Of a stretch of 64,000 bases of DNA, positions 8,987 to 46,521 are shown one piece after another. Source of the DNA: Pengzhenrongella frigida (GTDB lineage Bacteria > Actinomycetota > Actinomycetes > Actinomycetales > Cellulomonadaceae); contig NZ_SDWW01000006.1 of the NCBI RefSeq assembly GCF_004168625.1, forward strand, positions 1 through 64,000. Direction: 5' to 3'. Numbering within the stretch: the stretch's first letter is position 1; every line of letters starts with the position of its first letter. Made by a program: the position numbers and the translations under genes. Below the pieces are notes generated by a model that made no database searches, was not told where the DNA came from, and saw only the letters and a list, made by a program, of their open reading frames with translations.

Positions 8987-11215
8987 TCAGCGCGCTACCG
9001 CGCAGGGAGTGGCGCCGAGGTACTCCGCGGCCGCATCGGGCGACAGGGGGCGGCTCAGGTAGTAGCCCTGCGCCTGGTCGCACCCGACCCGGGTGACGAC
9101 GTCCAGCTGTTCGCGCGTCTCGACCCCTTCCACCACCGTGGTCGCGCCGATCGCGCGGGCGAGCTGGACGATGAACGCGAGCATCTCCTGGTCGCCGGGC
9201 AGTCGGCGCGTGAACGACTGGTCGATCTTGAGGATGTCGACCGGCAGGTCGCGCAGGTACGCGAGCGAGCTGTAGCCGGTCCCGAAGTCGTCGACGGCGA
9301 CGCGCACCCCGCGCGCGCGCAGCGCACCGAGCTGGCGCAGGCTGTGCTCGAGGTCGACCATCAGCACGCTCTCGGTGATCTCCAGCTGCAGGGCGGTCGG
9401 CGGCAGCCCGACGTCGCTCAACACAGCCGCGACGTCGTCCACACAACCGGCCTCGGCCAGCTGGCGGGCCGAGAGGTTCACCGCCACGGTCAGGGGGCGG
9501 CCGGTCTCGTCCCGCCACCGCCGGACGGCGGTGCACGCTGCCCGCAGCACCTGCTCGCCGAGGGCGTGGATGAGGCCGAGGTCCTCCGCCATCGGGATGA
9601 ACACCGCGGGTGACACGTCACCGTGCCCCGGCCGGTGCCACCGGGCGAGGGCCTCCACCCCGACCACCTCGGGGCGAGACGGCTCTCCGTCGGGCCCGGG
9701 CTCGCCCAGTGCCAGCACGGGCTGGTAGGCAACGGTGATCTCGCCCTGGTCGACGGCCCGGCGCAGGGCGCCATGGAACTCGAACCGCTCGCTCACGCTG
9801 GTGCGGAGCCGAGCGTCGAAGACCGCGACCCGGTCGCGACCGGCGTCCTTCGCCTGGTACATCGCGACGTCGGCATCCCGCAGCACGTCCGCGGCATCCT
9901 GCTCGCCGGCGACGCAGATCGTGACCCCGACCGACATGGTCGAGGTGATGATCCGGTCCCCGACCTCGATCGGATCGCGCAGGACCCCGCAGAGACGCTC
10001 CCCGACCGCCTTCGCCTCCTCGAGGTCGGTGACCTCCTGGCACAGGACGGCGAACTCGTCGCCTCCGAGCCGGGCCACGGTGTCGCCCGCGCGGACCACG
10101 CCGGTGAGCCGCGCGGCCGCCGCGCGCAGCAGGTCGTCGCCGGCGGCATGGCCGAGGGAGTCGTTGATCACCTTGAACCGGTCGACGTCACAGAACAGGA
10201 CGGCCACCACACCCCCGCCCCGCGTGGCCTGCTGCAGGGCGACCTCGAGCCGGTCGCTGAAGAGCGCCCGGTTGGGCAGGCCCGTCAGGGCGTCATGGGT
10301 CGCCGAGTGGGCCAGGGCCCGTGCGGCCTGACGCTGGTCGGTGACGTCGATGACGACGGCCCCGACGCCGAGAACCGTGCCACCCAACCGCACCGGGAAG
10401 TAGCTCGAGGTCCACGCTCGCTCACCGTCGGTCAGCTCGACGTCCCCGACCGGCTGACCGGACATCAGCACGCGGTGGAGGTTGAGTGCCAGCGGCGGCG
10501 TCGAGGTGGCGATGTCGGTCACGGCCCGCCCGAGGTGCTGCTTGACCGGCAACCCGGCGAGCGCGGCCATGGCGTCGTTCAGGCGGCGGAACCTGAGGTC
10601 GAGGTCCCAGAACCCCAGCCCGACGGGTGTGGCATCGACGTAGGTGTCGAGCAGGGCCAGAGCCCGGTCTCGGTCCGCCACCGCCGCGCGATAGGCCGAG
10701 GCCGCGGTGTGCACGAAGGCCGCGACGAGCGCGAGAGAGAACGCGCGCACGAGGGCGACCGGGGCGGGCCCGTCGGCCGCCTCGAGCGGCAGCAGCGCGA
10801 GATAGGTGATCGGGACGACGACGGCGACCAGCCGGCCGATCTCGCGCGGCAGCACCAGCGGGTACACCGCAGCCAGCACGAAGTACCAGAGGAGAAAGTA
10901 GCCGCTGACGTGGTCGTTCAGGGCCATGAGCAGGTAGCCGAGCACGAGGATGGCCGCCGCCCGCACGGTCACGCTGGCCGGCCCCTGCCAGCCGACCAGG
11001 CCCACCACGCCGAGCACGACGAGGATCGCGACCGCACCGTTGATGGCTGACGCCCATCCCTCGTCGGCGACGACCTGGATCGCGAGCGCATGGACGGCCA
11101 GCGCGAGGCAGGTCAACGGTTCGAGGAAGCGGAGGCGCTGAGGAACGCTGGTGCGGCGCGGGTCGGGATCGTCCGCGGGCCGCCATGCGCCCTCCGTGAG
11201 GGACTCCGCTGACAT
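8987..11215 (-). CDS. PAS-GGDEF-EAL c-di-GMP signalling protein
   Basis: A 742-residue protein: membrane segments in about residues 30-185, a PAS domain at about 190-295, GGDEF at about 300-465 and EAL at about 475-730. The cyclase motif VARLGGDEF is intact, with an RxxD I-site in VRAGDTVARLG. The phosphodiesterase keeps GVEALARWHRP, DDFGTGYSSLAYL and VEGVET, so both activities may be present. It controls c-di-GMP in response to a membrane or PAS-sensed cue. The minus-strand TAGCCT lies 6 nt before the ATG, indicating a leaderless mRNA divergent from the oxidoreductase gene. Confidence 0.9.
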   Translation of the reverse strand: MSAESLTEGAWRPADDPDPRRTSVPQRLRFLEPLTCLALAVHALAIQVVADEGWASAINGAVAILVVLGVVGLVGWQGPASVTVRAAAILVLGYLLMALNDHVSGYFLLWYFVLAAVYPLVLPREIGRLVAVVVPITYLALLPLEAADGPAPVALVRAFSLALVAAFVHTAASAYRAAVADRDRALALLDTYVDATPVGLGFWDLDLRFRRLNDAMAALAGLPVKQHLGRAVTDIATSTPPLALNLHRVLMSGQPVGDVELTDGERAWTSSYFPVRLGGTVLGVGAVVIDVTDQRQAARALAHSATHDALTGLPNRALFSDRLEVALQQATRGGGVVAVLFCDVDRFKVINDSLGHAAGDDLLRAAAARLTGVVRAGDTVARLGGDEFAVLCQEVTDLEEAKAVGERLCGVLRDPIEVGDRIITSTMSVGVTICVAGEQDAADVLRDADVAMYQAKDAGRDRVAVFDARLRTSVSERFEFHGALRRAVDQGEITVAYQPVLALGEPGPDGEPSRPEVVGVEALARWHRPGHGDVSPAVFIPMAEDLGLIHALGEQVLRAACTAVRRWRDETGRPLTVAVNLSARQLAEAGCVDDVAAVLSDVGLPPTALQLEITESVLMVDLEHSLRQLGALRARGVRVAVDDFGTGYSSLAYLRDLPVDILKIDQSFTRRLPGDQEMLAFIVQLARAIGATTVVEGVETREQLDVVTRVGCDQAQGYYLSRPLSPDAAAEYLGATPCAVAR

Positions 11216-26316: not shown

Positions 26317-27786
26317 TCAGGGCCAGGCTGCGCGCCGTTCGCGCTTGTGCTGGTACATCCTGTCGTCGGCGAGCGAGAGCAGGGTGTCGAGAGTCGCGCC
26401 CCCGCCGGGACGGGCGCTCGCGATCCCGATGCTGACTCGAACCTGCAGCGCGTGCTCACCCACCTGCACGGGCTCCGCGAAGGCTGCTTCGATTCGGGAG
26501 GCTGCGTCGATCGCGAGCCGTTCGTCGTCGCCCTCGAGCACGACGACGAACTCATCGCCTCCGAACCGGGCGACGATGTCGCCGTGAGCGTTCCGAACGC
26601 AGCGGCGTAGGCGGTCCGCGACCACGACGAGCAGGTCGTCGCCGACGCGGTGGCCCAGGGTGTCGTTGACGACCTTGAAGCCGTCGAGGTCGAGGTAGAG
26701 CACCGCGGCGCCGGGGGACCGTGCGTTGTTGACCCGGTCCAGGAGGGCGGTCAGGTGCCGGTCAGCGGCGCGGCGGTTCGGCAGACCGGTCAGCTGGTCG
26801 TGGTCCGCGAGGCGTTCGAGCCGCTTCTCGGCGCGAGCCTGCGACCGTGCCAGCTGCGCGACCCGGGCCAGGACGAGCGGGACCAGGACGAGCAGGGCGA
26901 GGCTGAGCATCAACCAGTCCGCGTCGTGGCCCATGAGCTCCTGCCCGGCGGCGAACACCGGTCCCACGACGAGGGCGACGCCGAGGAGGCTGAGTCGTCC
27001 TGCGCTGAGCTGGCCGCCCGTGCCCTCGCCGCCGCGGGCATCGAGCTGTGCGCTCGACGGGTGGGAGGCCGCGGCGGAGGCAGCGAAGTAGCCCAGTCCC
27101 CACAGGGCGCCGACCCACCTCGGAGCGGCGCCGGTGACCGGGTCGGCGGCGACCGCGCTCAGGATGGTCCCCGCGAGCGTCACGACCATGCTGATCAGGA
27201 AGTAGCCGAGGGAGGGCCGGGCCACCACCGCGGTGGTGATCGCCTGCACCAGCGCCCCCGCCACTCCGCTGAGGATCAGCAGCACCATCAGGTCGTACGA
27301 ACGCTCGAGCGGGGTGGCGCCCGCTGCGTCGAGCGCAGGGAACATCAGGACCGTCCACAGCACGACGGCCGCGCCGACGGCGATCGTGGCGGCATCGAGC
27401 ACGCCGCCGGCATCTCGCCGCACGGCCGGCAGGACCAGCAGGACGCTCGCGCAGAGGAAGCCCAGGTAGCCCAGGGGCAAGGTCACCAGCGGCACCCAGG
27501 CGGTCTGTGCGGTGGCTCCCGCGATTCCCACCTCGATGAGCCAGGAGAGGTTGTTCGCGGTAAGGAACGAGACGCCGATGACCATGAACCACCAGGGCGT
27601 GACCCAGGTGAGCTGGCCGCGGATCAGTCTGAGCCCGATGTTCACTGCCACGGTGGCGCTGGCCATCACGACCACGGAGCTGCGCACGATCGGGTCGCCC
27701 ACCGCGAACGCCAGGAGCACGACGACGACGAGCCCGGCGAAGCGGGCATGGACGAGCATCCGCCCATCCCCCCTGCGCGTGGCCAT
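26317..27786 (-). CDS. Membrane diguanylate cyclase (GGDEF)
   Basis: A 489-residue protein with an N-terminal half of about ten membrane helices (residues 10-305) and a C-terminal GGDEF domain. VARFGGDEFVVV near residue 410 is an intact active site, and LYLDLDGFKVVNDTLGH supplies the metal ligands. Unlike the other two c-di-GMP proteins here, the usual RxxD inhibitory site is absent (the stretch reads RNAHGD), so product inhibition may be lacking. The ATG is preceded by a weak AGCAGG. It is convergent with the OmpA-like gene, 28 bp apart. Confidence 0.87.
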   Translation of the reverse strand: MATRRGDGRMLVHARFAGLVVVVLLAFAVGDPIVRSSVVVMASATVAVNIGLRLIRGQLTWVTPWWFMVIGVSFLTANNLSWLIEVGIAGATAQTAWVPLVTLPLGYLGFLCASVLLVLPAVRRDAGGVLDAATIAVGAAVVLWTVLMFPALDAAGATPLERSYDLMVLLILSGVAGALVQAITTAVVARPSLGYFLISMVVTLAGTILSAVAADPVTGAAPRWVGALWGLGYFAASAAASHPSSAQLDARGGEGTGGQLSAGRLSLLGVALVVGPVFAAGQELMGHDADWLMLSLALLVLVPLVLARVAQLARSQARAEKRLERLADHDQLTGLPNRRAADRHLTALLDRVNNARSPGAAVLYLDLDGFKVVNDTLGHRVGDDLLVVVADRLRRCVRNAHGDIVARFGGDEFVVVLEGDDERLAIDAASRIEAAFAEPVQVGEHALQVRVSIGIASARPGGGATLDTLLSLADDRMYQHKRERRAAWP

Positions 27787-33645: not shown

Positions 33646-36411
33646 TCAGGTGAGGGCCGCCAACCGGCGCGCGGCCATCGCGCTCTTCGTGCCGGCACGT
33701 CCCGCCGCCAGGGCCGCCACGGCCGCCGGAAGCGGGACACGGACGCGATGTGACTCGGCAAGGACGGCCGCCAGCTCGATGATCGCGCCCCCGCCGGGCG
33801 TCGTCGGCGCGATCGTCAGCAGCCGGGCGGACGCGGCGAGCACGGTGTGCGCGGCGTGGTCCGAGATCCCGCTGGCGTCCCGCAGGGTCGACACCAGCCG
33901 GTTCACCTTGACCCGCTTCTCCACCACGAGCACCTCGGCCTGCGCGCCCAGCGCCGTCCCGTCGAGCAGGCCGTGGGACGCGCATCGGGCGATCGCTTCG
34001 GCCGCCCGGGATCGCACGGTGGCGTCCCGGAAGCCCGCGGCCAGGCCGAGCGCCGACAGCGACGGCGCGCCCAGCGGGGCCGAGGCGGCGCCGATCGCGT
34101 CGAGCAGCGGCCCGACGCCGGCCGTCGGCTTCTCGTCCCACGAGAGGAGCAACGGGTGAGCATGGGCGGCCAGGACGTCGGTGTCGAACGGGGTCAGACC
34201 GGCCCACAGCCCGAGGGTGGCCTCGTGCTGCGGCTCCCACGTCGCCTCGTCGACGTAGCTGCCGTGCTGCCGCACCGTGGAGGACAGGTCCAGGACGCCC
34301 CGGACCGGGTCGGTCACGGTGCCGGGCGTCGAGGAGTCGTCGAGCCACGCAAGCGTCTCGTGACCCGCGAACGAGCGGAACCGGCCGCCGAGCCCTGGTG
34401 TCACCGTCCGGCGCCAGCGCGGCGAGCGCTGCGCCAGCAGGTCGAGCCGGGCGTCGTCGTCGTCGGCCAGGACCCCGGCGGACAGCACCGCCGCCCGGTC
34501 GCCCGGGGCGATCCGGAGCAGGGCGGTGCCGCGGTCGTGCGGACGGCCGCCCGCTGCGCCAGCGACGGTGCGCAGCCGCGCGAGCACCTCGTCGGGGTCG
34601 ATCGTCCAGTCGCCGCGGGTCGGGGTCGACAGCAGCAGGGCGGGTCCTTCGCGCAGGGTCACGGTGACCTCGTGCAGGCGCGCGACGGCCAGGATCGACG
34701 GGGTCCACGCGGGCTCCTGCGCCGTCCACCACCAGGCGCTGGGCAGGGCCGCCAGCCGACCTTCGCCGAGGTTCTGGTGCATGGGCACCTCGCGCACGGC
34801 GGTTCCCGGCGGGGCCGAGGCCCGGTCCGGGGCGCTGCCGTGCAGCTGATAGCCGCGGCACTGGGTGGACGGCGGGCCGTCATCCAGCCAGCGGACGACG
34901 AGGTCGGCGATGCGGCGGCGCACGTTCAGGTCCATCTCGTCGACGACGGACTCACCCACCTTGCGGGCCCGCTTCGACAACGCGCGTGCGCTCGAGGGGA
35001 GCTCGGCCCGCAGCCGGACCACGGCCTCGAGGGCGCGCTCGATCTCGAGAGCCGGCGCCGGTTCCTCGAGCAGGTGCGCGAACACCTCGGCGAGCTCGCG
35101 GACGTCGGCGATCGCGGTCACCGCCTCCGGCGCCGGGAGGTCGATCGGGACGGGGCAGACCGCGGGCCTGGCCGGTGCCGTCGGCAGCGCCGCAGGGGCG
35201 AGGGTCCCGAGGGTCGCCCGGAGCTCGGGCCACGGCGCCGGCAGCGCCTGCGTGATCGCGGCGCGGACGCCTTCCCGAGCGTCATCGTCGAGGTGCCGGG
35301 CACAGTCGTGCAGGAGCCGTGCCGTGCGCAGGGCCAGGTCGGCGCGCTCGGGATCGAGGGTGGGTGCCACGACGACGGCGATGGCGGGGGCCAGGGCCGG
35401 GTCGGACGCCAGGATGCGGGCGAGCAGGGCGAGGTGAGCCACCACCGACTTCCGGTCGGCGCGGACCAGCACGTCGGCCGAGGCATCCACGAGCGCTCGC
35501 GCATCGAGCCGCCCGTCAGCCAGCAGCTCGCCGAGCACCTGCTGGGCGAAGGTCACCGTGACGAGCGGATGGGCGGCGAGCAGCCGGAGGTAGGCGTACT
35601 GGCGGTCACGGCGCTCGGAGGCGGTCACGCCCAGTCTCCCGTGCAGCGCGAGGAAGCCGGCCGCATCGCGATCGGGCAGGCCCGCGCCCAGCGCCCGCAG
35701 GCTGGCGTCGATCGCCCGCACGCGCGTGCCCGGGTCGCCCGTGCCCAGAGCGGTCAGCAGCCCGGCCCAGTGCTCGTCGCGGCGAGGTCCGCCACCGCCA
35801 GGTCCGCCACCGCCGGTCAGCGCTGCGCCCGCCTCTTCGGTGCTGAACGCCCGCCAGAGCAGCGGGACCAGTCCGGGGTCGGCCTGGGCCGCCTGGTCGA
35901 GCGGGCCGCGCACCGCCTCGAACAGCCAGGAGACGTAGCGGGGATCGGTCGGCTCCGCGACCATGCCCGCGCGCACCATCGCCCGCAGCAGCCGCCACCG
36001 GGGGCGCTTGTCGAGCCAGTCATCGGCGGCGAAGAGCGCCACGGCGAACCGCTCGAGCCAGCCGTCCGGTCGCTGGCCGAGCACGGGCAGGAGCCAGTCC
36101 TCGTGCTCCCAGGAGCCCCGACCCATCCCTACCGCGAGCGCGGCGGCCCGGGGCGAGGGCACGGTGCCGAGCTGCGCCGCGAGCCGCGCCGCGGAGTCGC
36201 TGGTGCCGCGGAGGAGCTCGGTGGTCGCCCAGGACGACGTGCCCGAGTCGATCGCGGCGGCGAGGCGGGCACGCTCGGCCTCCGTCGCGCCGTCGAGCAC
36301 CGCCACCACGTCGGGGACCCGGTCATCGACGATCGCCCGCACGACCAGGTCCATACGGTTCGGGGGTTCGCCCGACGATGCGTCGGCCCGGCCGGGACGC
36401 CACCAGCTCAC
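33646..36411 (-). CDS. DUF6493 family large helical protein
   Basis: A 921-residue soluble, Ala/Leu-rich, mainly helical protein with HEAT-like repeated helices over its first 480 residues. It fits the DUF6493 family in size and in its adjacency to a SWIM-domain gene. A middle region (about 570-700) is less helical. The chosen GTG at 36411 overlaps the stop of the SWIM gene (GTGA), implying coupled translation; an ATG at 36354 is an alternative. No catalytic motif is recognisable. A scaffold role with the SWIM protein is inferred. Confidence 0.65.
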   Translation of the reverse strand: MSWWRPGRADASSGEPPNRMDLVVRAIVDDRVPDVVAVLDGATEAERARLAAAIDSGTSSWATTELLRGTSDSAARLAAQLGTVPSPRAAALAVGMGRGSWEHEDWLLPVLGQRPDGWLERFAVALFAADDWLDKRPRWRLLRAMVRAGMVAEPTDPRYVSWLFEAVRGPLDQAAQADPGLVPLLWRAFSTEEAGAALTGGGGPGGGGPRRDEHWAGLLTALGTGDPGTRVRAIDASLRALGAGLPDRDAAGFLALHGRLGVTASERRDRQYAYLRLLAAHPLVTVTFAQQVLGELLADGRLDARALVDASADVLVRADRKSVVAHLALLARILASDPALAPAIAVVVAPTLDPERADLALRTARLLHDCARHLDDDAREGVRAAITQALPAPWPELRATLGTLAPAALPTAPARPAVCPVPIDLPAPEAVTAIADVRELAEVFAHLLEEPAPALEIERALEAVVRLRAELPSSARALSKRARKVGESVVDEMDLNVRRRIADLVVRWLDDGPPSTQCRGYQLHGSAPDRASAPPGTAVREVPMHQNLGEGRLAALPSAWWWTAQEPAWTPSILAVARLHEVTVTLREGPALLLSTPTRGDWTIDPDEVLARLRTVAGAAGGRPHDRGTALLRIAPGDRAAVLSAGVLADDDDARLDLLAQRSPRWRRTVTPGLGGRFRSFAGHETLAWLDDSSTPGTVTDPVRGVLDLSSTVRQHGSYVDEATWEPQHEATLGLWAGLTPFDTDVLAAHAHPLLLSWDEKPTAGVGPLLDAIGAASAPLGAPSLSALGLAAGFRDATVRSRAAEAIARCASHGLLDGTALGAQAEVLVVEKRVKVNRLVSTLRDASGISDHAAHTVLAASARLLTIAPTTPGGGAIIELAAVLAESHRVRVPLPAAVAALAAGRAGTKSAMAARRLAALT

Positions 36412-37751
36412 GTGGGATTGCCGCCCGTCGGTCCGCTCGGACTGCTCAACCGCACCGCGAGGACGTGCTTGCAGGGGCCACGCGCGCCGCGATGCTTCCC
36501 GTACCAGGCGCAGGTGCACCGATCCGTGTCATCGACGCCGAGGCGCACCGCGTAGTCCACGCCTGCGCTCCGGACCAGCACGTCCTCGCCGACCGCGTGC
36601 ACCGCGCCGTCCGCCGCCAGGGTGCGGGCGGCCTCGAGCCGGGGGTTTGCCCGCGGCACGGCCCGCAGGTCGAACGGGAGCAGTCGGGGGAAGAACCGCT
36701 GCTCGGCCGGGTCGTACCCGAGCTGACCGTTCGCGGCCCGGACGGCGTCGCTGTCGGTGTCGGTGCCGGCATGGGCCTGCGCCAGATCGTCGAGCAGAGC
36801 GCCCTCACCCGAGAACCCGCGGGACGCCTGGGGGCTCAGCCCCAGGACGAACCGCGCATGGGGGAGGAGAAGCTCCCAGCAGCTCGCCACCGGCTCGGAC
36901 CGCGGGTCGACCGCCTCGCCGTACACGCGCAGACCGGTGGCCAGTCGGAGGAGGGGCTCCAGGACCCGCAGCCGTTCCGGTCCGCCGAGGCACACCGATC
37001 CCGCCGCCGGGCGGCTCGCCAGCCGCAGGCCGCCGCCCGCCACCGCGCTCGCCCACACCGCCCGGGTGCTCGCGCTCGAACGCGGCAAGCCACGAACGAA
37101 GCGGCGGGCCGCGCCGGCATCGAGCTCGTGCCGCAAGGTCATCCGGCTCGCCGCGGCCTGCTGCGCCCCCAACGACGAGATCCAGCGCACCGGCAGGTCG
37201 ACCCTGCGCTCGACGGCGCTGCCGTCGAGGGTGCGTACCGCGACGTCGTCGCGCCCAACCTGGAGCTGCATCGGGTCGGTCCGGACCACCTGGCCGAGCA
37301 GGGCCCGCAGCTCGCCGTTCACGTCGATGTTGGTCGTGCCGTGCCGAGCGCGCGTGGTGTCCAGTCCGCCGGGCAGCACGTCCAGCCGCGCGTAGACGCC
37401 GCAGCACGCCGAGAGGCTCTCGAACCGGAGGTGACCGGACTCGGCGGTGATGATCGGGTCCGCGAACGCGAGCCGCCGCGCGAGCCCCGGCGGCAGGTAG
37501 TACCGGGTCCGGGCGACCTCCGCGACGCGCAGCAGACCGGCCGCGACGACGTCGGCGCGCTCGGCGCTGCCGGTGAAGAACGGGTCCGCGCCGTACTCGT
37601 CGTGGGCCGGTGCACCGGATGCCGTCGCAGCCGGGGCCGGGTCGCCCGTGCCGGTGAGCGCGGTCTCCAGCCGCACCGTCGGCTGCCCGTCGACGAGCTC
37701 ACCGCGGGATCGAGCCACGTACCGGTAGTGCTGCACCACGGTGTCGGCCAT
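36408..37751 (-). CDS. SWIM zinc-finger protein
   Basis: A 447-residue protein with a C-terminal SWIM zinc finger, CTCAWYGKHRGARGPCKHVLAV (CxC...CxH, about residues 412-433). The preceding 400 residues form a variable domain without a known catalytic motif. SWIM fingers bind DNA or protein. In many actinobacteria this gene sits with DUF6493, MoxR-type AAA and VWA genes; here only DUF6493 accompanies it. ATG at 37751, ribosome binding site weak. Divergent from the BTAD regulator. Confidence 0.75.
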   Translation of the reverse strand: MADTVVQHYRYVARSRGELVDGQPTVRLETALTGTGDPAPAATASGAPAHDEYGADPFFTGSAERADVVAAGLLRVAEVARTRYYLPPGLARRLAFADPIITAESGHLRFESLSACCGVYARLDVLPGGLDTTRARHGTTNIDVNGELRALLGQVVRTDPMQLQVGRDDVAVRTLDGSAVERRVDLPVRWISSLGAQQAAASRMTLRHELDAGAARRFVRGLPRSSASTRAVWASAVAGGGLRLASRPAAGSVCLGGPERLRVLEPLLRLATGLRVYGEAVDPRSEPVASCWELLLPHARFVLGLSPQASRGFSGEGALLDDLAQAHAGTDTDSDAVRAANGQLGYDPAEQRFFPRLLPFDLRAVPRANPRLEAARTLAADGAVHAVGEDVLVRSAGVDYAVRLGVDDTDRCTCAWYGKHRGARGPCKHVLAVRLSSPSGPTGGNPT

Positions 37752-37903
37752 GCGGGTCCATCGGCACCCCGGCGCGCGGACGTGAGGGGCGCCGACGTGA
37801 GCGGTCGACCTTCTCCCGAAGCAGGGCACTGGTGCACGATGGTGGCGACATCCCTGCGCCGGCGTGGCCGGACCGCACCAGACGGTGAGCCCTGGAGGTG
37901 CTC

Positions 37904-39703
37904 ATGGTCGCCCGGATCAACCTGCTCGGCCCGCCGTCTATCGAACGTGCCGGTGCGCCCGTCGCGCCGCCGCGGGGAAGCAAGGCGTGGGCGCTGCTCG
38001 CCTACCTGGCGTTGACCGACGGGCCGGTCCCGCGCTCGCGGCTGATGGACCTGCTGTTCGACGAGGCCGACGACCCGGCCGCGGCCCTGCGGTGGAGCCT
38101 GTCGCAGCTGCGCCGGGCGCTCGCGGGCGTGGCCGACGTCGGCGGCGACCCGCTCCGGTACGAGCCGCACGCCGGCACGGTGGTCGACGTCGACGTGCTC
38201 GCGCACGGTTCGTGGGTCGAGGCGCTCATGCTGCCCGGGTTCGGGGGCGGGCTGCTCGAGGGGGTGACCCCGCGGGTGGGGGCGGCGTTCGACCTGTGGC
38301 TGTCGACCGAGCGGCGTCGCACCGCCGGGCAGCGAGCCGCGATCTTGCAGGAGGCCGCACACAGCCGGCTGGCCCGCGGTGACGTCGCCTCGGCCGTCGA
38401 TCTGGCCGGTCGGCTCGTCGCCGCCGAACCGCTCACCGAGCGCAGCCTCGAGCTGCTGGTGCGGGCCCTCGTGGCGGGCGGGGACCACGCCGCCGCTGTC
38501 GAACGGGTGCGGGACTGCCGCGCGCTGTTCCTGCGCGAGCTGGGCACGGCGCCGTCGTCGGCCCTCGACGAGGCGCTGCGGCGCCGGCCCGCGTCGGGGA
38601 CGACCCGGACGGCGGCAGCGGTGGATGCGGCGATCGAGGGCGGGGTGGGGGCCGCCCACGTCGGGGCCTACGAGCGCGCGGTGGAGCTGCTGCGGTCCGC
38701 GGTCGACGGTTCGCGCGCGCTCGAGGACGGGCCCCTGCTGGCTCGCTCGCTCGGTGAGCTCGGCGGAACGCTGGTGCGCGGGGTGCGGGGGAGCGACGAG
38801 GAGGCCGTCGGGGTGCTGCACGAGGCCTCCGCGATGGCCCGGGACCTCGGCGCGCGGGGGGTCGCGGCGAAGGCTGCCCTGGAGCTCGGCCACGTCGAGC
38901 TGCTGCGCGCGCACTACCCGCGGATGGAGGTCTGGTTCGACCGCGCCACGGCATTGGCCGACGACGACGCGCACCTGCTCGCCTGGGTGGGTGTCTACGC
39001 GGGGCTCGGTCGGACCGACCAGGCGGACTACCCCCGCGCCGCCCGCACGCTGGATCGGGCCGTCGAGCGGGCCCGGTCGGTCGGCGACCAGCGCGCCCTG
39101 GCCTACGCCCTGACCGGGCTCGGCCGGCTGCGGCTGCTCCGGGCCGAGCTCGACGCCGCCCGCTCGGCGCTCGACCTGGCCTGCGCGACCGCCGACGAGC
39201 TCGGGTGGACCGCCTTCCTCCCCTTCCCGCGGGCGCTGCGCGCGGAGGTGGCGATGGCGCGCGGCGACCTGGACGGGGCCGCGGAGGCGTTCGACAGGTC
39301 GTATGCGTTGGCCTGCCAGGTGGGCGACCCGTGCTGGGAGAGCTACTCGCTGCGGGGCCGGGGACTGCTGGCGGCGACCGTGCACGACGACGCGCTGGCG
39401 CTCGACCTGCTCCTCGAGGCGCCGGCGGCGTGTCGGCGGCAGCGGGTCACCCACAACTGGGTCGAGGGCCACTGCCTGGACGCGCTGTGCCGGTTCGCCG
39501 TGAGCCGGGGTCTGGCGGGTGCGCCGGGCTGGGTCGACGAGCTCGACGAGTTCGCCTCGCGGCGGGGGATGCGCGAGCTGGTCGCGCGGGCGGCGGTGCA
39601 TCGCTGCGACCAGGGGCAGGACGGCGCGCGCGAGCTCGCTGCGGTGCTGGTCGCCGGGATCGACAACCCGGCGCTCGCCGGCGAGGTGACGTCTCGGGCC
39701 TAG
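37904..39703 (+). CDS. BTAD/TPR transcriptional regulator (AfsR/SARP-like)
   Basis: A 599-residue regulator. An N-terminal winged-helix DNA-binding domain (about 1-90, with SKAWALLAYLALTDGPVPRSRL) is followed by the bacterial transcriptional activator domain (about 95-240, ending RELGTAPSSALDEALRR) and a long TPR-type helical repeat region to the C-terminus. No NB-ARC ATPase is present. The ATG at 37904 is preceded by GGAGGTG. It stands 134 bp upstream of a methyltransferase gene, a common pairing in actinobacteria, so it may activate that gene. Confidence 0.8.
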   Translation: MVARINLLGPPSIERAGAPVAPPRGSKAWALLAYLALTDGPVPRSRLMDLLFDEADDPAAALRWSLSQLRRALAGVADVGGDPLRYEPHAGTVVDVDVLAHGSWVEALMLPGFGGGLLEGVTPRVGAAFDLWLSTERRRTAGQRAAILQEAAHSRLARGDVASAVDLAGRLVAAEPLTERSLELLVRALVAGGDHAAAVERVRDCRALFLRELGTAPSSALDEALRRRPASGTTRTAAAVDAAIEGGVGAAHVGAYERAVELLRSAVDGSRALEDGPLLARSLGELGGTLVRGVRGSDEEAVGVLHEASAMARDLGARGVAAKAALELGHVELLRAHYPRMEVWFDRATALADDDAHLLAWVGVYAGLGRTDQADYPRAARTLDRAVERARSVGDQRALAYALTGLGRLRLLRAELDAARSALDLACATADELGWTAFLPFPRALRAEVAMARGDLDGAAEAFDRSYALACQVGDPCWESYSLRGRGLLAATVHDDALALDLLLEAPAACRRQRVTHNWVEGHCLDALCRFAVSRGLAGAPGWVDELDEFASRRGMRELVARAAVHRCDQGQDGARELAAVLVAGIDNPALAGEVTSRA

Positions 39704-40939: not shown

Positions 40940-41773
40940 GTGGAACCACGACCGGTGACCCGGGCGCGCCTGGTCGACGATCTGCGGGCGCTCGGCGTCC
41001 GAGACGGCATGGTGCTGCTCGTTCATGCATCCCTGTCGTCCATCGGATGGGTGCCCGGTGGGGAGCAGGCGCTGCACGAGGCGCTGGTCGCGGCCGTCGG
41101 CGAGCGCGGGACCCTGGTGATGCCCACCCAGTCCTGGCAGCTGTGCGACCCCGCGTACCTCAACGAGGCGCACGTGCCCGCGGCCTGGTGGCCCGAGATC
41201 CGGGACACGCTGCCGGCGTTCGACCCGGCCCGAACCCCCACGCGCACCATGGGCGCCCTCGCTGAGCTGTTCCGCACCCACCCGGGCACGCTGCGCAGCG
41301 CGCACCCGCACCGCTCGTTCGCCGCCGCCGGACCGCACACCCGCGAGGTCGTGGCGACCCATGACCTCGACTCGCCGGTCGGCGAGCGATCGCCCCTGCG
41401 CGCCCTGGTGGACCTGGGCGGCTGGGTGCTCCTGCTCGGCGTCGGGCACAAGAAGAGCACGACCCTGCACCTCGCGGAGCACCGCTGCGACTACCCGGGC
41501 AAGCACACGGTCCGCAACACCGCCCCGATCCTGGTCGACGGGACCCGGACCCGCGTGGGGTGGGAGGAGCTGTGGGTGGCCGACGACGACTTCGACCAGG
41601 TCGGTGCGGAGTTCGCCGCGAGCAGCGGTCTGGTCCGCAGCGCCCAGGTCGGGCACGCCGATGCCCTGCTGATGCCGCAACGTGACCTCGTGGAGTTCGC
41701 CGCGTCGTGGTTCCCGCGGCACCGTGACGCCGCAGCCTTCTCGCAGGACTCCACCGCCTGGAACGCCCGCTGA
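40940..41773 (+). CDS. AAC(3)-family N-acetyltransferase
   Basis: A 277-residue member of the aminoglycoside 3-N-acetyltransferase family. Family stretches are VLLVHASLSSIGWVPGG near the N-terminus, PTRTMGALAELFRTHPGTLRS, SAHPHRSFAAAGP with the conserved His, and LLLGVGHKKSTTLHLAEHR. It uses acetyl-CoA and could modify aminoglycosides; many chromosomal members have other substrates, so resistance is not established. GTG start with GGGGAG upstream. The promoter region contains a perfect palindrome. Confidence 0.8.
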   Translation: MEPRPVTRARLVDDLRALGVRDGMVLLVHASLSSIGWVPGGEQALHEALVAAVGERGTLVMPTQSWQLCDPAYLNEAHVPAAWWPEIRDTLPAFDPARTPTRTMGALAELFRTHPGTLRSAHPHRSFAAAGPHTREVVATHDLDSPVGERSPLRALVDLGGWVLLLGVGHKKSTTLHLAEHRCDYPGKHTVRNTAPILVDGTRTRVGWEELWVADDDFDQVGAEFAASSGLVRSAQVGHADALLMPQRDLVEFAASWFPRHRDAAAFSQDSTAWNAR

Positions 41774-41808: not shown

Positions 41809-44800
41809 ATGCCCGAAACGGGTCCGACCAGCACCGCCGCGGGCGTTCCCGCGGCGGCTTCCGACGCCTCGGGGACCACGCCGGCCGGGTGGTTCGCCGA
41901 CCCGCTCCGGCGCGCCCCGCTGCGGTACTGGTCCGGCACGGCGTGGACGACGTGGCTGGCCGCCGGGACGACCGTCTGGGCGGACCCGGCGTCGGGCCAC
42001 CGTCCGCTGGTCCCGGGTGACCTCGCCGCGCTGACCTTCGTCGAGGAGGTCTTCCTGCCCGCTGCGCAGCCCCGCGCCCAGCTCACCGTCGCGCAGGAGG
42101 GTGCCCTGCGTGAGCTCGTCGCCGAGCTGAGCGCCCGAGCGCGCACCCCTCTCGCTGCCGCCGCACCGCCCGCGGCCACCCTGCCCACCGCCGTGCCCCC
42201 GACCGCCGTGCCCCCGACCGCTGTGCCCCCGACCGCCGTGCCCCCGACCGCGATGGCGCACGGCGTACCGCTACCGCGGACCGCGCCCGCCCCCGCGTTC
42301 CGTGCGCCGGTCTCGCCGCAGGCCCCGTTCGCCCAGCCGGCGCAGCTCCGGTCACCCGGTCGGCCGGAGCATGCGCCGCAGCCGCTGGTCTCCCCGCGCC
42401 CGCAGGACCGGCAGCGGCCGCCGTCCGAGCTGTCGCGGTGGTGGGCGCGCACCCGTGGCGCAGCCCTGTCCGACCTGGCGGTGCACGGCCTGGCGTACCT
42501 CGGGGTGCTGCTGCTGTTCGTCGGGATGTTCGGCCTGGTCGCGTTCGCGTTCGGCGAGGTCACCCCGGGACTGCGCCCGGTCGCCGAGCTGGCCTGTGCG
42601 GCCGTGCCGTTCATCGCCGCCCGGCTGCTGCGCCGCCACGGCGCGGAGGTCGCGGGCCGGGCGCTCGAGGTGGCCGCCGGGCTCCTCGTGCCGCTCATGG
42701 TCATCGCCTCCGTCGTGGACGGCTTCCCGGTTCCCCCGGACCTGCGCGGGGGCGCGCTCGTGGCGGTGCTCACGGTGGTGTGCGTCGCGCTCGCCGCCAC
42801 GTACGCGGCCTGGTCGCGGGCCCACCCGGCCAGCGGGCTGCGGTTCCTCCTCGGCCCGCTGCTGATGCTCGCCGCAGCGATGTCCACCCTCGGGATCGGG
42901 CGAGCGGTCCCGACCGGCGAGGACGTCGCCGTCCCGACCCTGGCCCAGGTCGCGGCCATGTCCGTCGTCCTGGTCGCGGTCCTGGTCGGCGCGCGCCTGC
43001 GCCCGGCGGGGCACCTCTACCGGCCCACCCTCACCGCCGCGATCCCGGCCACGTTCGTGCTGGCGCTGCTCGCGGTGCTGACGGCGCTCGCGCAGGGCTG
43101 GCCCACGGTCACGTTCGGCCTGGCCGGGATCGCGCTCCTGATCGCCCTCGAGCTGCTGCGACCCCGGCTGCCCGCGCGGGTGCTCGACGCCGCCCTGCCG
43201 CTGTGGTGGGCGACGATCGCCCTCGCCGTCGTCTCCGCCGAGGGGGCGCCCGGTGCCACGGTGGTGGCGGTGGGCTTCGTCGGGCTGCTCGAGCTGTTCG
43301 CCCACCGGCACCGGCCGGGTGCCGTGCTCCTGCTGCCGGCGGCCGGGCTGGCCGTGAGCCTGTTGGCGGTCGCCGGGGATCCGTGGTGGGCCACCGCGAC
43401 GTTCGGGGTCGTGGCCGCGTGGGTGATCGTGCGCCGGACCGTCCCGTTCGCGGGTGCAGCGCTCGCGCTGGATGCGGCCGCCGCGGTGCTGCCGGTGGCC
43501 GCCGTCGGCGCCCTCGCTGCCGCGACGGACGTCGCGACCGCGCTCGTGGGCGCCACCGCGCTGGTGGCGCTCGCCACCGTCCCGGCGACCCGGCGGGTGC
43601 TGCGTCGCGGCGACGGGGACGCGTTCTGGCGGTACTGGTGGTCGGCGGCGGCCGTGATCACCGCCGTGCTCGCCCAGGGCTCCTGGGTGCCCGGAAGTGC
43701 GCCGTCGGCAACCGGCTGGGTCACCGTCGGGGTCTTCGCGACCCTGGGGGCGCTGGGCGTCGTCGGTCCGGTCGCGCCGGTGTGGCGGCCGTGGCTGACC
43801 ACCGCGGCGGTGGCCTGGTCGTGGGTCCTCACGTGTGCGGTCGGCAGCATCCCGGACGGGACCCGCGGGGGCGTGCTGGCCGCGACCGCGCTGGCGCTGG
43901 TCGTCGCCGGTCACCTGGCACGACCGACCACCGCGACCGGGGTCCCGGCGGCGCTTGCGCTGTGCGGCCACGTGGTCGCGTTCCTCGCCCTGCTCCTGTC
44001 AGGGACCGGCTGGGCCCTGGTGGCGGCGTGCGCCGCGGCCACCGCCGGACTCGTCGTCACGGCCGTCCGCGACGACCGCGATCGGTCCCCGGTCGGGTTC
44101 GCGCTCCACGCCGCACCGGCGCTGCGCTACCTGCCCTGGACCCTGGCCGCGATCGGCGCACCGGTGACCGCCGCCCTGGCCCTGGATCGCAGCGGTGCGC
44201 TGCCCTGGACCGCCCCGTGGGCACCCGCCGTCGTGGTCGCCACGGCGCTCGCGTACGCGGCCGTGGCGCGGGGAGCCGCGGGGGAGCGGCTCGCCGGCAC
44301 GGCGACCTGGTCCGGCTTCGCGGCAGCACTGCTCGCCGTCGGCCTGGTCCGCGAGCCGTGGCCCGCGGTGATGGGCCTGCTGGGCGTCGTCGCCGTCGTG
44401 GTCGTCGTGCCCCGCGTGCGCCGCGCGCGGGTCATGCGGTGGACCGCTTGGCTGGTCCCGGCCCCGCTGGTCGCCGTCGTGGCCGACCTGGGGCTCGGGT
44501 GGTTCGCCGCGCTGAACCCGGCCGCCGCGGTCGCGGTCACCCTCACCGGGGTCGGCACGGCCCTGCTCGTCGGCGCGGCCGCGGCCGACCTGCGCGGCCG
44601 CCGGTGGGCGCCGCGCCGGGCCGCGAGCCACGGCGCGCTGGTCCCGCCGCTGGTGCTCGGCGGGCTCGAGGTCACGATCGGTCTGCTCCTGACCGGTGGA
44701 CCGGTCCCGGGCTTCTTGGCCGGCGTGCTGGTCGCGGTGGCCGCGGGGGCTGCGCTCGCGACCGGCATCCTGGCGCAGGCGGGCAGCCTCGCTGGCACGG

Positions 44801-46521
44801 CCGCCCTCCTGGGCTGGGTCGCCACCCTGCGCCTGGCCGGATCGGCCCTCGACTCCCGGGCCTGGGTCGCGGTGCTGGCGACCGCGGGCCTGCTGGTCGT
44901 GGCCGAGGGGCTGCACCGCCTCGTCGCGGACCGGGTCTGGTGGAGCCGGTGGGACGTCCCACCGCTGGTGGTCGCCGCACCGGTGGCCCTCACCGGGCTC
45001 GTGCTCGCGGCCGACGGCGACTGGTTCGTCACGACCTACGTCCTGACCGGGCTGCTGAGCGTCGTGGCCGCGGTCCGGCTGCACCGCGTGCCCGCGGCCC
45101 GGGAGACGACCGGATGGGCGGGTACCGCCGCCATCCTGCTGGGGGCGACCGCCGCGGGTCCCGGGTGGGCCGCGCTGGCGCTGCTCGCGCTCGGCGCGGC
45201 GCACACGGCGCTCTCCGTGCACGCGACCGGGCTGATGCGGGTGGTTCGCCTGATGATCGGTGCGGCCGCGACGGTCGCGGCGTGGCTCGCGGCCCTGGCC
45301 TGGTTCGGCTGGTCGACCCAGCTGGCGACCGATGTCACCGCCCTCGGGGCGGGCGCCGTGGCGGTCGGGGTCGCGGTCGCGGCCCGCAGCGACCGGCTGA
45401 ACCGCACGGGCTGGCTGAACCGCACGGGCTGGCTGAACCGCACGGCCACGGCCGTGTGGGGCACGACGGCGGCCGTCGTCGTCGGCGCCGCGACCCTGGT
45501 GGCCGTGTCGTGGGGCACCCTGGTGGCCATGTCGTTGGGCACCCTGGTGGCCGAGTCGCCGGGCACGGTGACGACCGTCGCGCCGAGCCTGCCCGTGGCG
45601 GTCGGGGTGGCGCTCGTCGCGGTGGCGGTCGCGCTCGCCGCGGCGCCGTTGCGGGCGACGTGGCTGGCGGACGTGGCGGTGGCCCCCGCGCTGGTGAGCC
45701 TGCTGCTGGCGTTCGAGGTCGCGGAGCTCGCCCCGGCCGTGCGCGTCACGGCGCTGTCCGTCCTGGGCGCAGCCGTCGCGGTGGTCCTGCTGGCCGCCCC
45801 ACGCCTCGTGGGCCGCTCGGCCTGGGTGCGGGTCGGGGTCGAGGCGGCCGCGGCCGCCGTCGGCGTGGCCGGCCTGCTCGGGCTGGACGCGCTGCCGGAC
45901 GCGATGCTGCTGGTCCCGGTGCTGGCCGCCGCGGCGGCGTTGGCGGCCGCGACCGGGGTGGCCTGGCGCAGCGTCGAGCTGCAGATGCTCTCCCCGGCGG
46001 TGGCGTGCGTGGCGTGGCTGGTGTTCGTCGCGAACGCGGTCGGCGGTGGTCCCCAGTGGTACACCACCGGGGTGGCGGTCACGCTGCTGACGATCGTGGC
46101 GCTGTGGCGCCGGGACCGGCGCCGGCTCGGGCTGCCCCTGGCCGGACCGCAGGTCGTCGCGCTGGAGCTGACGGCCGTCGCGTTCGGAGTCGGGGCGTCC
46201 TTCGTCCAGGCGCTGACGGTGTCGGTCGCCCACGCGCTGGTCGCGATCGTGCTCGGGGCGATCGTGGCCGGGTGGGGCGCCGCCACGCGCGTGCGGCGTC
46301 GGGTGGTGGCCGGGGTCGTCGTCGTGCTGGCCGCCGTGGTGATCCTCGTGGTGGTCCCGCTCGTGGCGCTGCTGCCAGAGTGGGGCGGGGCGAGCCTGTG
46401 GATCTTGGTCGCCGTCATCGGCCTGGTGGCGGTGCTCGCCGGGACGCTCGCCGAGAAGGCCCGCGATGCCGCGCGCGCCACTCGCGTGCGGGTCGGTGGC
46501 CTCACCGCCGGGTGGGAGTGA
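41809..46521 (+). CDS. Giant DUF2510-containing polytopic membrane protein
   Basis: A 1570-residue protein. A DUF2510 domain (about residues 25-50, PAGWFADP...YWSGTAWT) and an Ala/Pro-rich linker (about 105-215) precede more than 35 predicted hydrophobic helices running to the C-terminus. The size and composition fit the uncharacterised SCO7613-like large membrane proteins of actinobacteria. No transport or catalytic motif is recognised. The coding sequence carries three in-frame DNA repeats (AVPPT x4, LNRTGW x3, an 8-codon unit x3). The ATG follows AAGGAAC. The upstream gene ends 35 bp away, so an operon with it is possible. Confidence 0.75.
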   Translation: MPETGPTSTAAGVPAAASDASGTTPAGWFADPLRRAPLRYWSGTAWTTWLAAGTTVWADPASGHRPLVPGDLAALTFVEEVFLPAAQPRAQLTVAQEGALRELVAELSARARTPLAAAAPPAATLPTAVPPTAVPPTAVPPTAVPPTAMAHGVPLPRTAPAPAFRAPVSPQAPFAQPAQLRSPGRPEHAPQPLVSPRPQDRQRPPSELSRWWARTRGAALSDLAVHGLAYLGVLLLFVGMFGLVAFAFGEVTPGLRPVAELACAAVPFIAARLLRRHGAEVAGRALEVAAGLLVPLMVIASVVDGFPVPPDLRGGALVAVLTVVCVALAATYAAWSRAHPASGLRFLLGPLLMLAAAMSTLGIGRAVPTGEDVAVPTLAQVAAMSVVLVAVLVGARLRPAGHLYRPTLTAAIPATFVLALLAVLTALAQGWPTVTFGLAGIALLIALELLRPRLPARVLDAALPLWWATIALAVVSAEGAPGATVVAVGFVGLLELFAHRHRPGAVLLLPAAGLAVSLLAVAGDPWWATATFGVVAAWVIVRRTVPFAGAALALDAAAAVLPVAAVGALAAATDVATALVGATALVALATVPATRRVLRRGDGDAFWRYWWSAAAVITAVLAQGSWVPGSAPSATGWVTVGVFATLGALGVVGPVAPVWRPWLTTAAVAWSWVLTCAVGSIPDGTRGGVLAATALALVVAGHLARPTTATGVPAALALCGHVVAFLALLLSGTGWALVAACAAATAGLVVTAVRDDRDRSPVGFALHAAPALRYLPWTLAAIGAPVTAALALDRSGALPWTAPWAPAVVVATALAYAAVARGAAGERLAGTATWSGFAAALLAVGLVREPWPAVMGLLGVVAVVVVVPRVRRARVMRWTAWLVPAPLVAVVADLGLGWFAALNPAAAVAVTLTGVGTALLVGAAAADLRGRRWAPRRAASHGALVPPLVLGGLEVTIGLLLTGGPVPGFLAGVLVAVAAGAALATGILAQAGSLAGTAALLGWVATLRLAGSALDSRAWVAVLATAGLLVVAEGLHRLVADRVWWSRWDVPPLVVAAPVALTGLVLAADGDWFVTTYVLTGLLSVVAAVRLHRVPAARETTGWAGTAAILLGATAAGPGWAALALLALGAAHTALSVHATGLMRVVRLMIGAAATVAAWLAALAWFGWSTQLATDVTALGAGAVAVGVAVAARSDRLNRTGWLNRTGWLNRTATAVWGTTAAVVVGAATLVAVSWGTLVAMSLGTLVAESPGTVTTVAPSLPVAVGVALVAVAVALAAAPLRATWLADVAVAPALVSLLLAFEVAELAPAVRVTALSVLGAAVAVVLLAAPRLVGRSAWVRVGVEAAAAAVGVAGLLGLDALPDAMLLVPVLAAAAALAAATGVAWRSVELQMLSPAVACVAWLVFVANAVGGGPQWYTTGVAVTLLTIVALWRRDRRRLGLPLAGPQVVALELTAVAFGVGASFVQALTVSVAHALVAIVLGAIVAGWGAATRVRRRVVAGVVVVLAAVVILVVVPLVALLPEWGGASLWILVAVIGLVAVLAGTLAEKARDAARATRVRVGGLTAGWE
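42190..42249. repeat. 15-bp tandem repeat, four copies
   Basis: Four near-identical 15-bp units encode AVPPT repeats in the linker after DUF2510. The period is a multiple of three, so length changes would keep the frame. Confidence 0.85.
45397..45445. repeat. 18-bp tandem repeat in the giant membrane protein gene
   Basis: Two identical 18-bp units (45397-45414 and 45415-45432) plus a 13-bp partial third encode LNRTGW repeats between membrane helices. Confidence 0.85.
45493..45564. repeat. 24-bp tandem repeat, three copies
   Basis: Three adjacent 24-bp units (45493, 45517, 45541) differ by a few bases and encode TLVAVSWG, TLVAMSLG and TLVAESPG, extending a hydrophobic segment. Confidence 0.8.

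What the first reader, a model, noticed from the sequence alone, without database searches (positions are those of the whole stretch)
33646..37751. SWIM-DUF6493 operon lacking its usual AAA and VWA partners
A SWIM zinc-finger protein and a 921-residue HEAT-like DUF6493 protein overlap by GTGA. From memory, such genes often accompany MoxR-type AAA ATPases and VWA proteins in predicted conflict or assembly systems, yet none is within 4 kb on either side. This may be a stand-alone or partial version of such a system.
Basis: partly seen in the sequence, partly recalled or inferred. Interest (0 to 1): 0.5.

Follow-up and report, generated by a model that had tools for sequence, protein, structure and literature searches.

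The report
Clamp-like SWIM protein with HEAT partner
Two overlapping bacterial genes encode a protein predicted to fold like the DNA clamp PCNA, with a zinc finger added, and a large helical-repeat partner; they look like a two-gene unit of their own rather than the leftover of an AAA/VWA system, and the clamp half has a relative in a retron.

Summary
The two genes are real and overlap by GTGA (36408-36411). The premise that they lost AAA and VWA partners is not supported. The E. coli set of that kind, yehLMPQ, uses a different SWIM family. In 86 related loci I found no MoxR, YehM, YehP or YehQ homologue, though the VWA query was weak. A DUF6493 homologue lies in 83 of the 86, and 65 of 80 have a start codon at the same 4-base overlap.

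Two results change the reading. (1) The SWIM protein model (pLDDT 82) matches the two-domain PCNA clamp fold over residues 58-310 (Z 17.5, rmsd 3.1, 213 residues), followed by the SWIM finger; sequence searches did not show this. (2) The SWIM protein is homologous to the SWIM protein of a type XIII retron (hhalign 99.7%), where it sits between a HEAT-WGR protein and a reverse transcriptase. The window's genome has no RVT_1 match, and its helical partner is a different family.

So this is a reverse-transcriptase-free relative of the retron SWIM module with another solenoid partner: patchy (SWIM family in 24 of 396 genomes of the order), in Actinomycetota and Pseudomonadota. A role in DNA surveillance or defence is my first guess, unproven.

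The parts
36408..37751 (-). SWIM protein gene, 447 aa (PCNA-like fold + SWIM zinc finger)
   Evidence: translation; PADLOC SWIM_XIII E 2.3e-31; model; folds
36822..37580 (-). codons 58-310: two-domain PCNA-type clamp fold
   Evidence: VIA Z 17.5, rmsd 3.1, 213 aligned; Foldseek; charge counts over 50 rows
36720..36776 (-). place (codons 326-344) where the window copy lacks about 30 residues of a winged-helix-like segment: 19 residues here, 49-55 in the other 49 aligned rows
   Evidence: same gap in G279/L179
36444..36602 (-). codons 384-436: SWIM zinc finger, CxCx12CxH, the four ligands invariant in 50 of 50 rows
33646..36411 (-). DUF6493/DUF7825-related ARM/HEAT alpha-solenoid, 921 aa
36408..36411 (-). 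GTGA stop/start overlap (translational coupling inferred); an NTGA start is available at the same place in 65 of 80 relatives
37752..37897 (.). intergenic stretch, divergent with a BTAD regulator gene (37898-39703, +); probable promoter region of the pair
   Evidence: inference

Best explanation
A two-gene, translationally coupled module. Protein 1 is a PCNA-like two-domain clamp carrying a SWIM zinc finger; protein 2 is a long ARM/HEAT solenoid that changes faster. Shown by calls: gene overlap, linkage across genomes, predicted folds, homology of protein 1 to the SWIM protein of a type XIII retron, no RVT_1 and no DUF5682 match in this genome. Inferred: the two proteins form a complex; the clamp half and the zinc finger engage DNA; the solenoid recognises a variable partner and holds or releases the clamp. 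Most likely purpose: surveillance of foreign or damaged DNA (defence), to which retrons add a reverse transcriptase and msDNA as a further trigger.
For: PCNA fold: Foldseek, 476 chains at E <= 0.001, the 50 rows shown are PCNA or PCNA complexes; VIA best Z 17.5, the 50 rows shown likewise. The four helices taken to line the channel hold 0.162 Arg/Lys against 0.055 Asp/Glu per residue, the rest of 58-310 0.091 and 0.102. Retron link: plasmid of Methylobacterium bullatum (L185) with WGR_XIII (E 1.5e-251), SWIM_XIII (1.4e-211) and RT_XIII (6.6e-176) in a row; hhalign of the window's family to that SWIM protein 99.7%, E 3.1e-25, 363 columns. Partnership: DUF6493 homologue in 83 of 86 SWIM loci (78 of the 80 not used for the profile); 65 of 80 with NTGA start; co-occurrence: 24 SWIM and 20 DUF6493 genomes of 396, 15 both, Fisher 3e-17 (13, 11 and 10 of 109 genera); mirror r 0.893, 0 of 2000 permutations. 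Defence-like behaviour: patchy (24 of 396); DUF6493 less alike than SWIM in 946 of 946 comparisons among 44 loci; two or three full-length DUF6493 genes in 7 of 80 loci; the tree joins seven Pseudomonadota rows with three Actinomycetota (97/99).
Against: No toxin, nuclease or other enzyme domain found. No defence-island signal seen: among 125 neighbours of 32 of 80 loci no PADLOC family matched more than 2, though 40 families matched at least one and no baseline was run. No match in 50,697 phage records, none confirmed in viral contigs, matches in 8-9 of 72,556 plasmid records. In Streptomyces and Actinomadura the same neighbour families recur in 9-12 loci, which fits vertical inheritance. G+C of the pair (0.759) is within that of its flanks (0.704 and 0.760), so composition does not mark it as foreign. 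Conserved basic positions are hardly denser in the channel helices (4 of 55) than elsewhere in 58-310 (13 of 198). The mirror signal includes species history. No detectable homology of DUF6493 to the retron's HEAT-WGR protein (hhalign 0.5%). PIP-like motifs in DUF6493: 1 of 60, 0.82 by shuffling. Ring formation, DNA binding and protection were not tested.
Confidence: 0.45

Rival explanations
1. A DNA repair or replication-associated clamp complex of the cell itself (an alternative clamp with a HEAT scaffold, working somewhat like the 9-1-1 clamp), not a defence system.
For: PCNA fold; recurring neighbours in Streptomyces and Actinomadura; no defence-island signal; absent from phage records; ordinary G+C.
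Against: Patchy: 24 of 396 genomes of the order, P0002 without match in the four congeners; homologous protein in a type XIII retron; fast-changing and sometimes multiplied solenoid.
Confidence: 0.3
2. One reading: a partial or stripped version of a MoxR-AAA/VWA/SWIM conflict or assembly system.
For: Shared SWIM motif with YehQ; the E. coli yeh cluster has AAA, DUF5682, VWA and SWIM genes in a row.
Against: Different SWIM family; no MoxR, YehM, YehP or YehQ homologue in 86 loci, with weaker power for VWA; no DUF5682 in the genome; MoxR genes of this genome lie elsewhere.
Confidence: 0.04
3. A retron remnant: a type XIII retron that lost its reverse transcriptase and msDNA in this lineage and is decaying.
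For: Homology to SWIM_XIII; window copy lacks the winged-helix segment; no RVT_1 match in the genome.
Against: Both frames are long and intact; the same gap occurs in another genus; no relative of the retron RT in the ORFs of 86 loci, while the same query finds 8 of 10 RT control loci; solenoid unrelated to the retron's.
Confidence: 0.1

Closest known systems
Type XIII retron (PADLOC RT_XIII, SWIM_XIII, WGR_XIII / HEAT-ARM_XIII)
   Same: Homologous SWIM protein next to a large helical-repeat protein
   Different: No RVT_1 match in the window's genome; the helical partner is another family; gene order SWIM then solenoid, against solenoid, SWIM, RT in L185
PCNA (eukaryotic/archaeal two-domain sliding clamp)
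   Same: Two-domain fold over residues 58-310; channel helices richer in Arg/Lys than in Asp/Glu
   Different: No sequence match; a predicted helix (188-201) where PCNA has the interdomain loop (recalled); residues 246-257 of domain 2 hold little strand in the model; SWIM finger added; ring formation untested
E. coli yehLMPQ (MoxR AAA - DUF5682 - VWA - SWIM)
   Same: Has a SWIM-motif protein
   Different: SWIM protein is another family; AAA, DUF5682 and VWA are not beside the pair here
SWIM zinc finger family + DUF6493 family pairs annotated on plasmids (Diaphorobacter, Asticcacaulis, Streptomyces)
   Same: Same two-gene unit with no MoxR or VWA gene annotated in four fetched regions
   Different: Diaphorobacter has two DUF6493 genes; Asticcacaulis has an 'ATP-binding protein' of unnamed kind 5.3 kb upstream; the window copy lacks the winged-helix segment

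Membership tests
Type XIII retron | SWIM_XIII protein | tested here: met
   PADLOC E 2.3e-31; hhalign 99.7% to retron SWIM in L185
Type XIII retron | retron reverse transcriptase | tested here: not met
   RVT_1 search of own genome: 0 matches at E <= 0.001; no relative of the L185 RT in the window
Type XIII retron | HEAT-ARM_XIII or WGR_XIII partner | tested here: not met
   No PADLOC match for P0002 at E <= 1; hhalign with L185 WGR_XIII protein 0.5%; helical-repeat architecture alike
Type XIII retron | msr-msd non-coding RNA | tested here: inconclusive
   Rfam at gathering score finds none in the window, nor in the true retron locus L185
PCNA sliding clamp | two-domain clamp fold | tested here: met
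   predicted model
PCNA sliding clamp | sequence match to PCNA models or chains | tested here: not met
   Pfam up to E 10 gives only SWIM; PDB profile search up to E 1 gives no PCNA
PCNA sliding clamp | ring-shaped oligomer around DNA | not testable with these tools
   no complex prediction on hand
MoxR/VWA/SWIM (yehLMPQ) system | YehQ-type SWIM protein | tested here: not met
MoxR/VWA/SWIM (yehLMPQ) system | linked AAA, DUF5682 and VWA genes | tested here: not met
   (VWA query weak)
DUF6493 (PF20103) | Pfam gathering score | tested here: not met
   no PF20103 match listed at E <= 10
DUF6493 (PF20103) | homology to annotated DUF6493 proteins beside a SWIM gene | tested here: met
anti-phage defence system | protects against phage | not testable with these tools
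   needs phage challenge

The most novel reading that the evidence does not exclude
Bacteria and retrons use a PCNA-like clamp, tipped with a zinc finger and held by an interchangeable helical-repeat protein, as the DNA-sensing or killing core of an immune module; the retron reverse transcriptase is only one way to trigger it, and the form without it is the commoner one.
Probability: 0.3. Interest if true: 0.82.

Novelty: new variant of a known kind. Interest (0 to 1): 0.56.

Why it matters
What the SWIM protein of type XIII retrons does is, as far as I recall, not known; my paper searches found nothing on it. A PCNA-type fold gives a concrete, testable idea (a clamp on DNA), and the form without reverse transcriptase (SWIM relatives at 580 or more places; pairing checked in 80) offers a simpler system in which to test it. 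It would also be, as far as I recall, unusual to find a PCNA-type clamp encoded by bacterial chromosomes. If the pair proves to be housekeeping, it would still be an undescribed accessory clamp complex.

Tried and rejected
Rejected: partial AAA/VWA system. Own-genome PF04434 search gave no match at E <= 0.001 although the motif is intact. NCBIfam: no match for either protein at E <= 1. PDB sequence searches: three weak rows for the SWIM profile (E 0.087 or more), none for the solenoid. PIP-box idea: 1 of 60 against 0.82 by shuffling. A third conserved gene: none seen; the most common Pfam family among 125 neighbours of 32 of the 80 loci matched 3, and families beyond the first 25 of 177 were not shown. 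A reverse-transcriptase motif scan of 86 loci is worthless, because the strict pattern also misses the true RT of L185; a phmmer search with that RT replaced it: 0 of 86 loci, 8 of 10 control loci. Reverse transcriptase elsewhere in relatives: RT_XIII rings in 13 of 50 genomes (50 of the 80 loci given), 8 strongly and 5 weakly; the ten RT loci fetched (flanks of at most about 1.5 kb) hold no SWIM or DUF6493 match. Empty site: in congener G004 the two flanking genes lie 2.4 kb apart with an AIM24 and a wax-ester-synthase gene between them, so the place is variable rather than cleanly empty. Foreign composition: not seen. No convincing flanking repeats, no Rfam match. Papers: ten searches listed three papers in all; passages of one, PMC10910872, were read, the other two were seen as listings only. 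The name 'WHSWIM' and the retron classification paper are recalled; that paper is not held. PCNA strand names, its interdomain loop and the channel-lining helices are recalled and assigned from the order of predicted elements; no coordinates were seen. Alignments A3 and A4 used 49 of 80 SWIM and 59 of 80 DUF6493 stretches besides the window's own.
Full report
Observation. Two genes on the minus strand, 37751..36408 (447 aa) and 36411..33646 (921 aa), overlap by GTGA. The first ends in an intact SWIM motif, CxCx12CxH, just under the Pfam cut-off, and matches PADLOC SWIM_XIII at E 2.3e-31. The second has only a sub-threshold DUF7825 match but is a BLAST relative of annotated DUF6493 proteins. 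Neighbours scanned within 4 kb are a GNAT enzyme, methyltransferases, a BTAD regulator and an aminoglycoside N-acetyltransferase-like gene; no AAA or VWA.

Are AAA and VWA the usual partners? Not in this family. Of eight plasmid records with a SWIM relative I fetched six. Four show the SWIM gene followed by a DUF6493-type gene with no MoxR or VWA gene annotated in the region (the Asticcacaulis region has an 'ATP-binding protein' of unnamed kind 5.3 kb upstream), one has the SWIM gene without an adjacent DUF6493 gene, one is unannotated but has a DUF6493-type ORF behind the SWIM gene, which went into the profile. Together that makes 86 loci and 1.63 Mb. A DUF6493 homologue is present in 83 of 86 (78 of the 80 not used to build the profile; the misses are L008, L080 and L026, whose contig is 4 kb). 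YehL, YehM, YehP, YehQ and MoxR queries found nothing at E 1e-5. The MoxR query is sensitive (it finds the other three MoxR genes of this genome), the VWA query is not. In 71 of 80 loci the DUF6493 gene follows on the same strand, in 65 with an in-frame start at the 4-base NTGA overlap. In 396 genomes of the order, 24 have the SWIM family (E 1e-10) and 20 DUF6493 (E 1e-5), 15 both (1.2 expected; Fisher 3e-17; by genus 13, 11 and 10 of 109). Of the nine SWIM-only genomes, three carry a diverged DUF6493-like frame upstream; five genomes have DUF6493 only. Other neighbour families recur in at most 22 of the 86 loci, and none is a constant partner. The E. coli yehLMPQ set has a different SWIM protein, and the window's genome has no DUF5682 match; its MoxR genes lie elsewhere, beside DUF58, transglutaminase, VWA or RDD genes.

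What the SWIM protein is. The AlphaFold2 model (50 rows, mean pLDDT 81.9, pTM 0.80) matches PCNA over residues 58-310: the 50 rows shown by Foldseek and the 50 shown by VIA are PCNA or PCNA complexes (best Z 17.5, rmsd 3.1, 213 aligned, target of 244). Element order fits two PCNA domains (recalled topology). The four helices taken to line the channel hold 0.162 Arg/Lys and 0.055 Asp/Glu per residue over 50 rows, against 0.091 and 0.102 in the rest of 58-310, with no acid conserved at 0.8 or more; but positions with a conserved base are hardly denser there (4 of 55) than elsewhere (13 of 198). The most conserved strands (about 0.95) surround the invariant E111...C116...D124 block; by element order this lies near where PCNA binds PIP peptides (inference from recalled topology). 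The other 49 aligned relatives then have a winged-helix-like segment, which the window copy lacks in frame (19 residues against 49-55), as does a relative in another genus of the same family (G279/L179), its sister in the tree (100/97, with a long branch). The SWIM ligands are invariant in the 50 rows.

What the second protein is. A nearly all-helical ARM/HEAT solenoid (pLDDT 80.4, pTM 0.67); best matches are generic solenoids (CAND1, beta-catenin, importins), so no specific relative is claimed. It is less alike than the SWIM protein in all 946 comparisons among 44 loci (mean identity 0.30 against 0.58), and the two identity matrices correlate (r 0.893, 0 of 2000 permutations), to which species history also contributes. 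Seven of 80 loci carry two or three full-length DUF6493 stretches, and Diaphorobacter has two; 14 of 80 show two or more matching ORFs, some of them split pieces.

Retron link. On a Methylobacterium bullatum plasmid (L185) three adjacent genes match PADLOC WGR_XIII, SWIM_XIII and RT_XIII with E-values of 1.5e-251, 1.4e-211 and 6.6e-176. The window's SWIM family aligns to that SWIM protein over 363 columns (99.7%, E 3.1e-25), from the clamp region to the SWIM finger; the solenoids do not align (0.5%). The window's genome holds no RVT_1 match. A search with the L185 reverse transcriptase finds nothing in the ORFs of the 86 loci or in the window, while it finds 8 of 10 control loci. RT_XIII rings in 13 of 50 relatives' genomes (8 strongly), with no SWIM or DUF6493 match in the ten RT loci fetched, whose flanks are short. 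So the SWIM clamp appears as a shared module with different solenoid partners and an optional reverse transcriptase; this rests on one retron locus read here plus the PADLOC models.

Spread. P0002 has no match in the four congeners nor in the other relatives searched (1 of 59 genomes, the own one). In congener G004 the same two flanking genes enclose 2.4 kb with other genes. The SWIM tree places seven Pseudomonadota rows in a supported set with three Actinomycetota (97/99); several rows have long branches, L185, L007 and L179 among them. In Streptomyces and Actinomadura the same neighbours recur. G+C of the pair does not stand out. No phage record and no confirmed viral contig carries it.

Mechanism. 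Most likely the pair forms a DNA-engaging complex: a clamp-like body with a zinc finger, controlled by the solenoid. I put defence or surveillance of foreign DNA first (about 0.45) because of the retron homology, patchiness and fast-changing solenoid; a cellular repair clamp is the main rival (about 0.3) because of stable neighbours in some genera and no defence-island signal (without a baseline). Ring formation, DNA binding and protection were not tested.

Noticed in passing
window 36720-36776: In-frame lack of about 30 residues of a winged-helix-like segment in the SWIM protein; seen also in genome G279 (L179), not in the other 49 rows of A3.
   Followed up: partly
L185 3351-10379: Type XIII retron gene set (WGR-HEAT, SWIM, RT) on a Methylobacterium bullatum plasmid whose record shows no gene annotation there in this collection.
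   Followed up: partly
L174-L178 (same family as the window's genome): A second, deep SWIM lineage (37-39% identical to the window's) whose weak DUF6493-like gene lies upstream rather than downstream in three of the five loci; none was found in the other two.
   Followed up: partly
L182 5258-9299: SWIM gene interrupted by a stop codon, and its DUF6493 neighbour in two frames: possibly a decayed copy or sequencing errors.
   Followed up: no
window 41809-46521: 1570-aa protein with only a sub-threshold DUF2510 match.
   Followed up: no
window 40940-41773: Aminoglycoside 3-N-acetyltransferase family gene (Antibiotic_NAT, E 2.5e-87).
   Followed up: no
window 8987-11215 and 26317-27786: GGDEF-EAL and GGDEF proteins (cyclic-di-GMP turnover).
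   Followed up: no
L052 11338-19087 and L035 11269-21219: Three DUF6493 stretches behind one SWIM gene: head to tail in L052; in L035 the third is apart, with another gene between.
   Followed up: no
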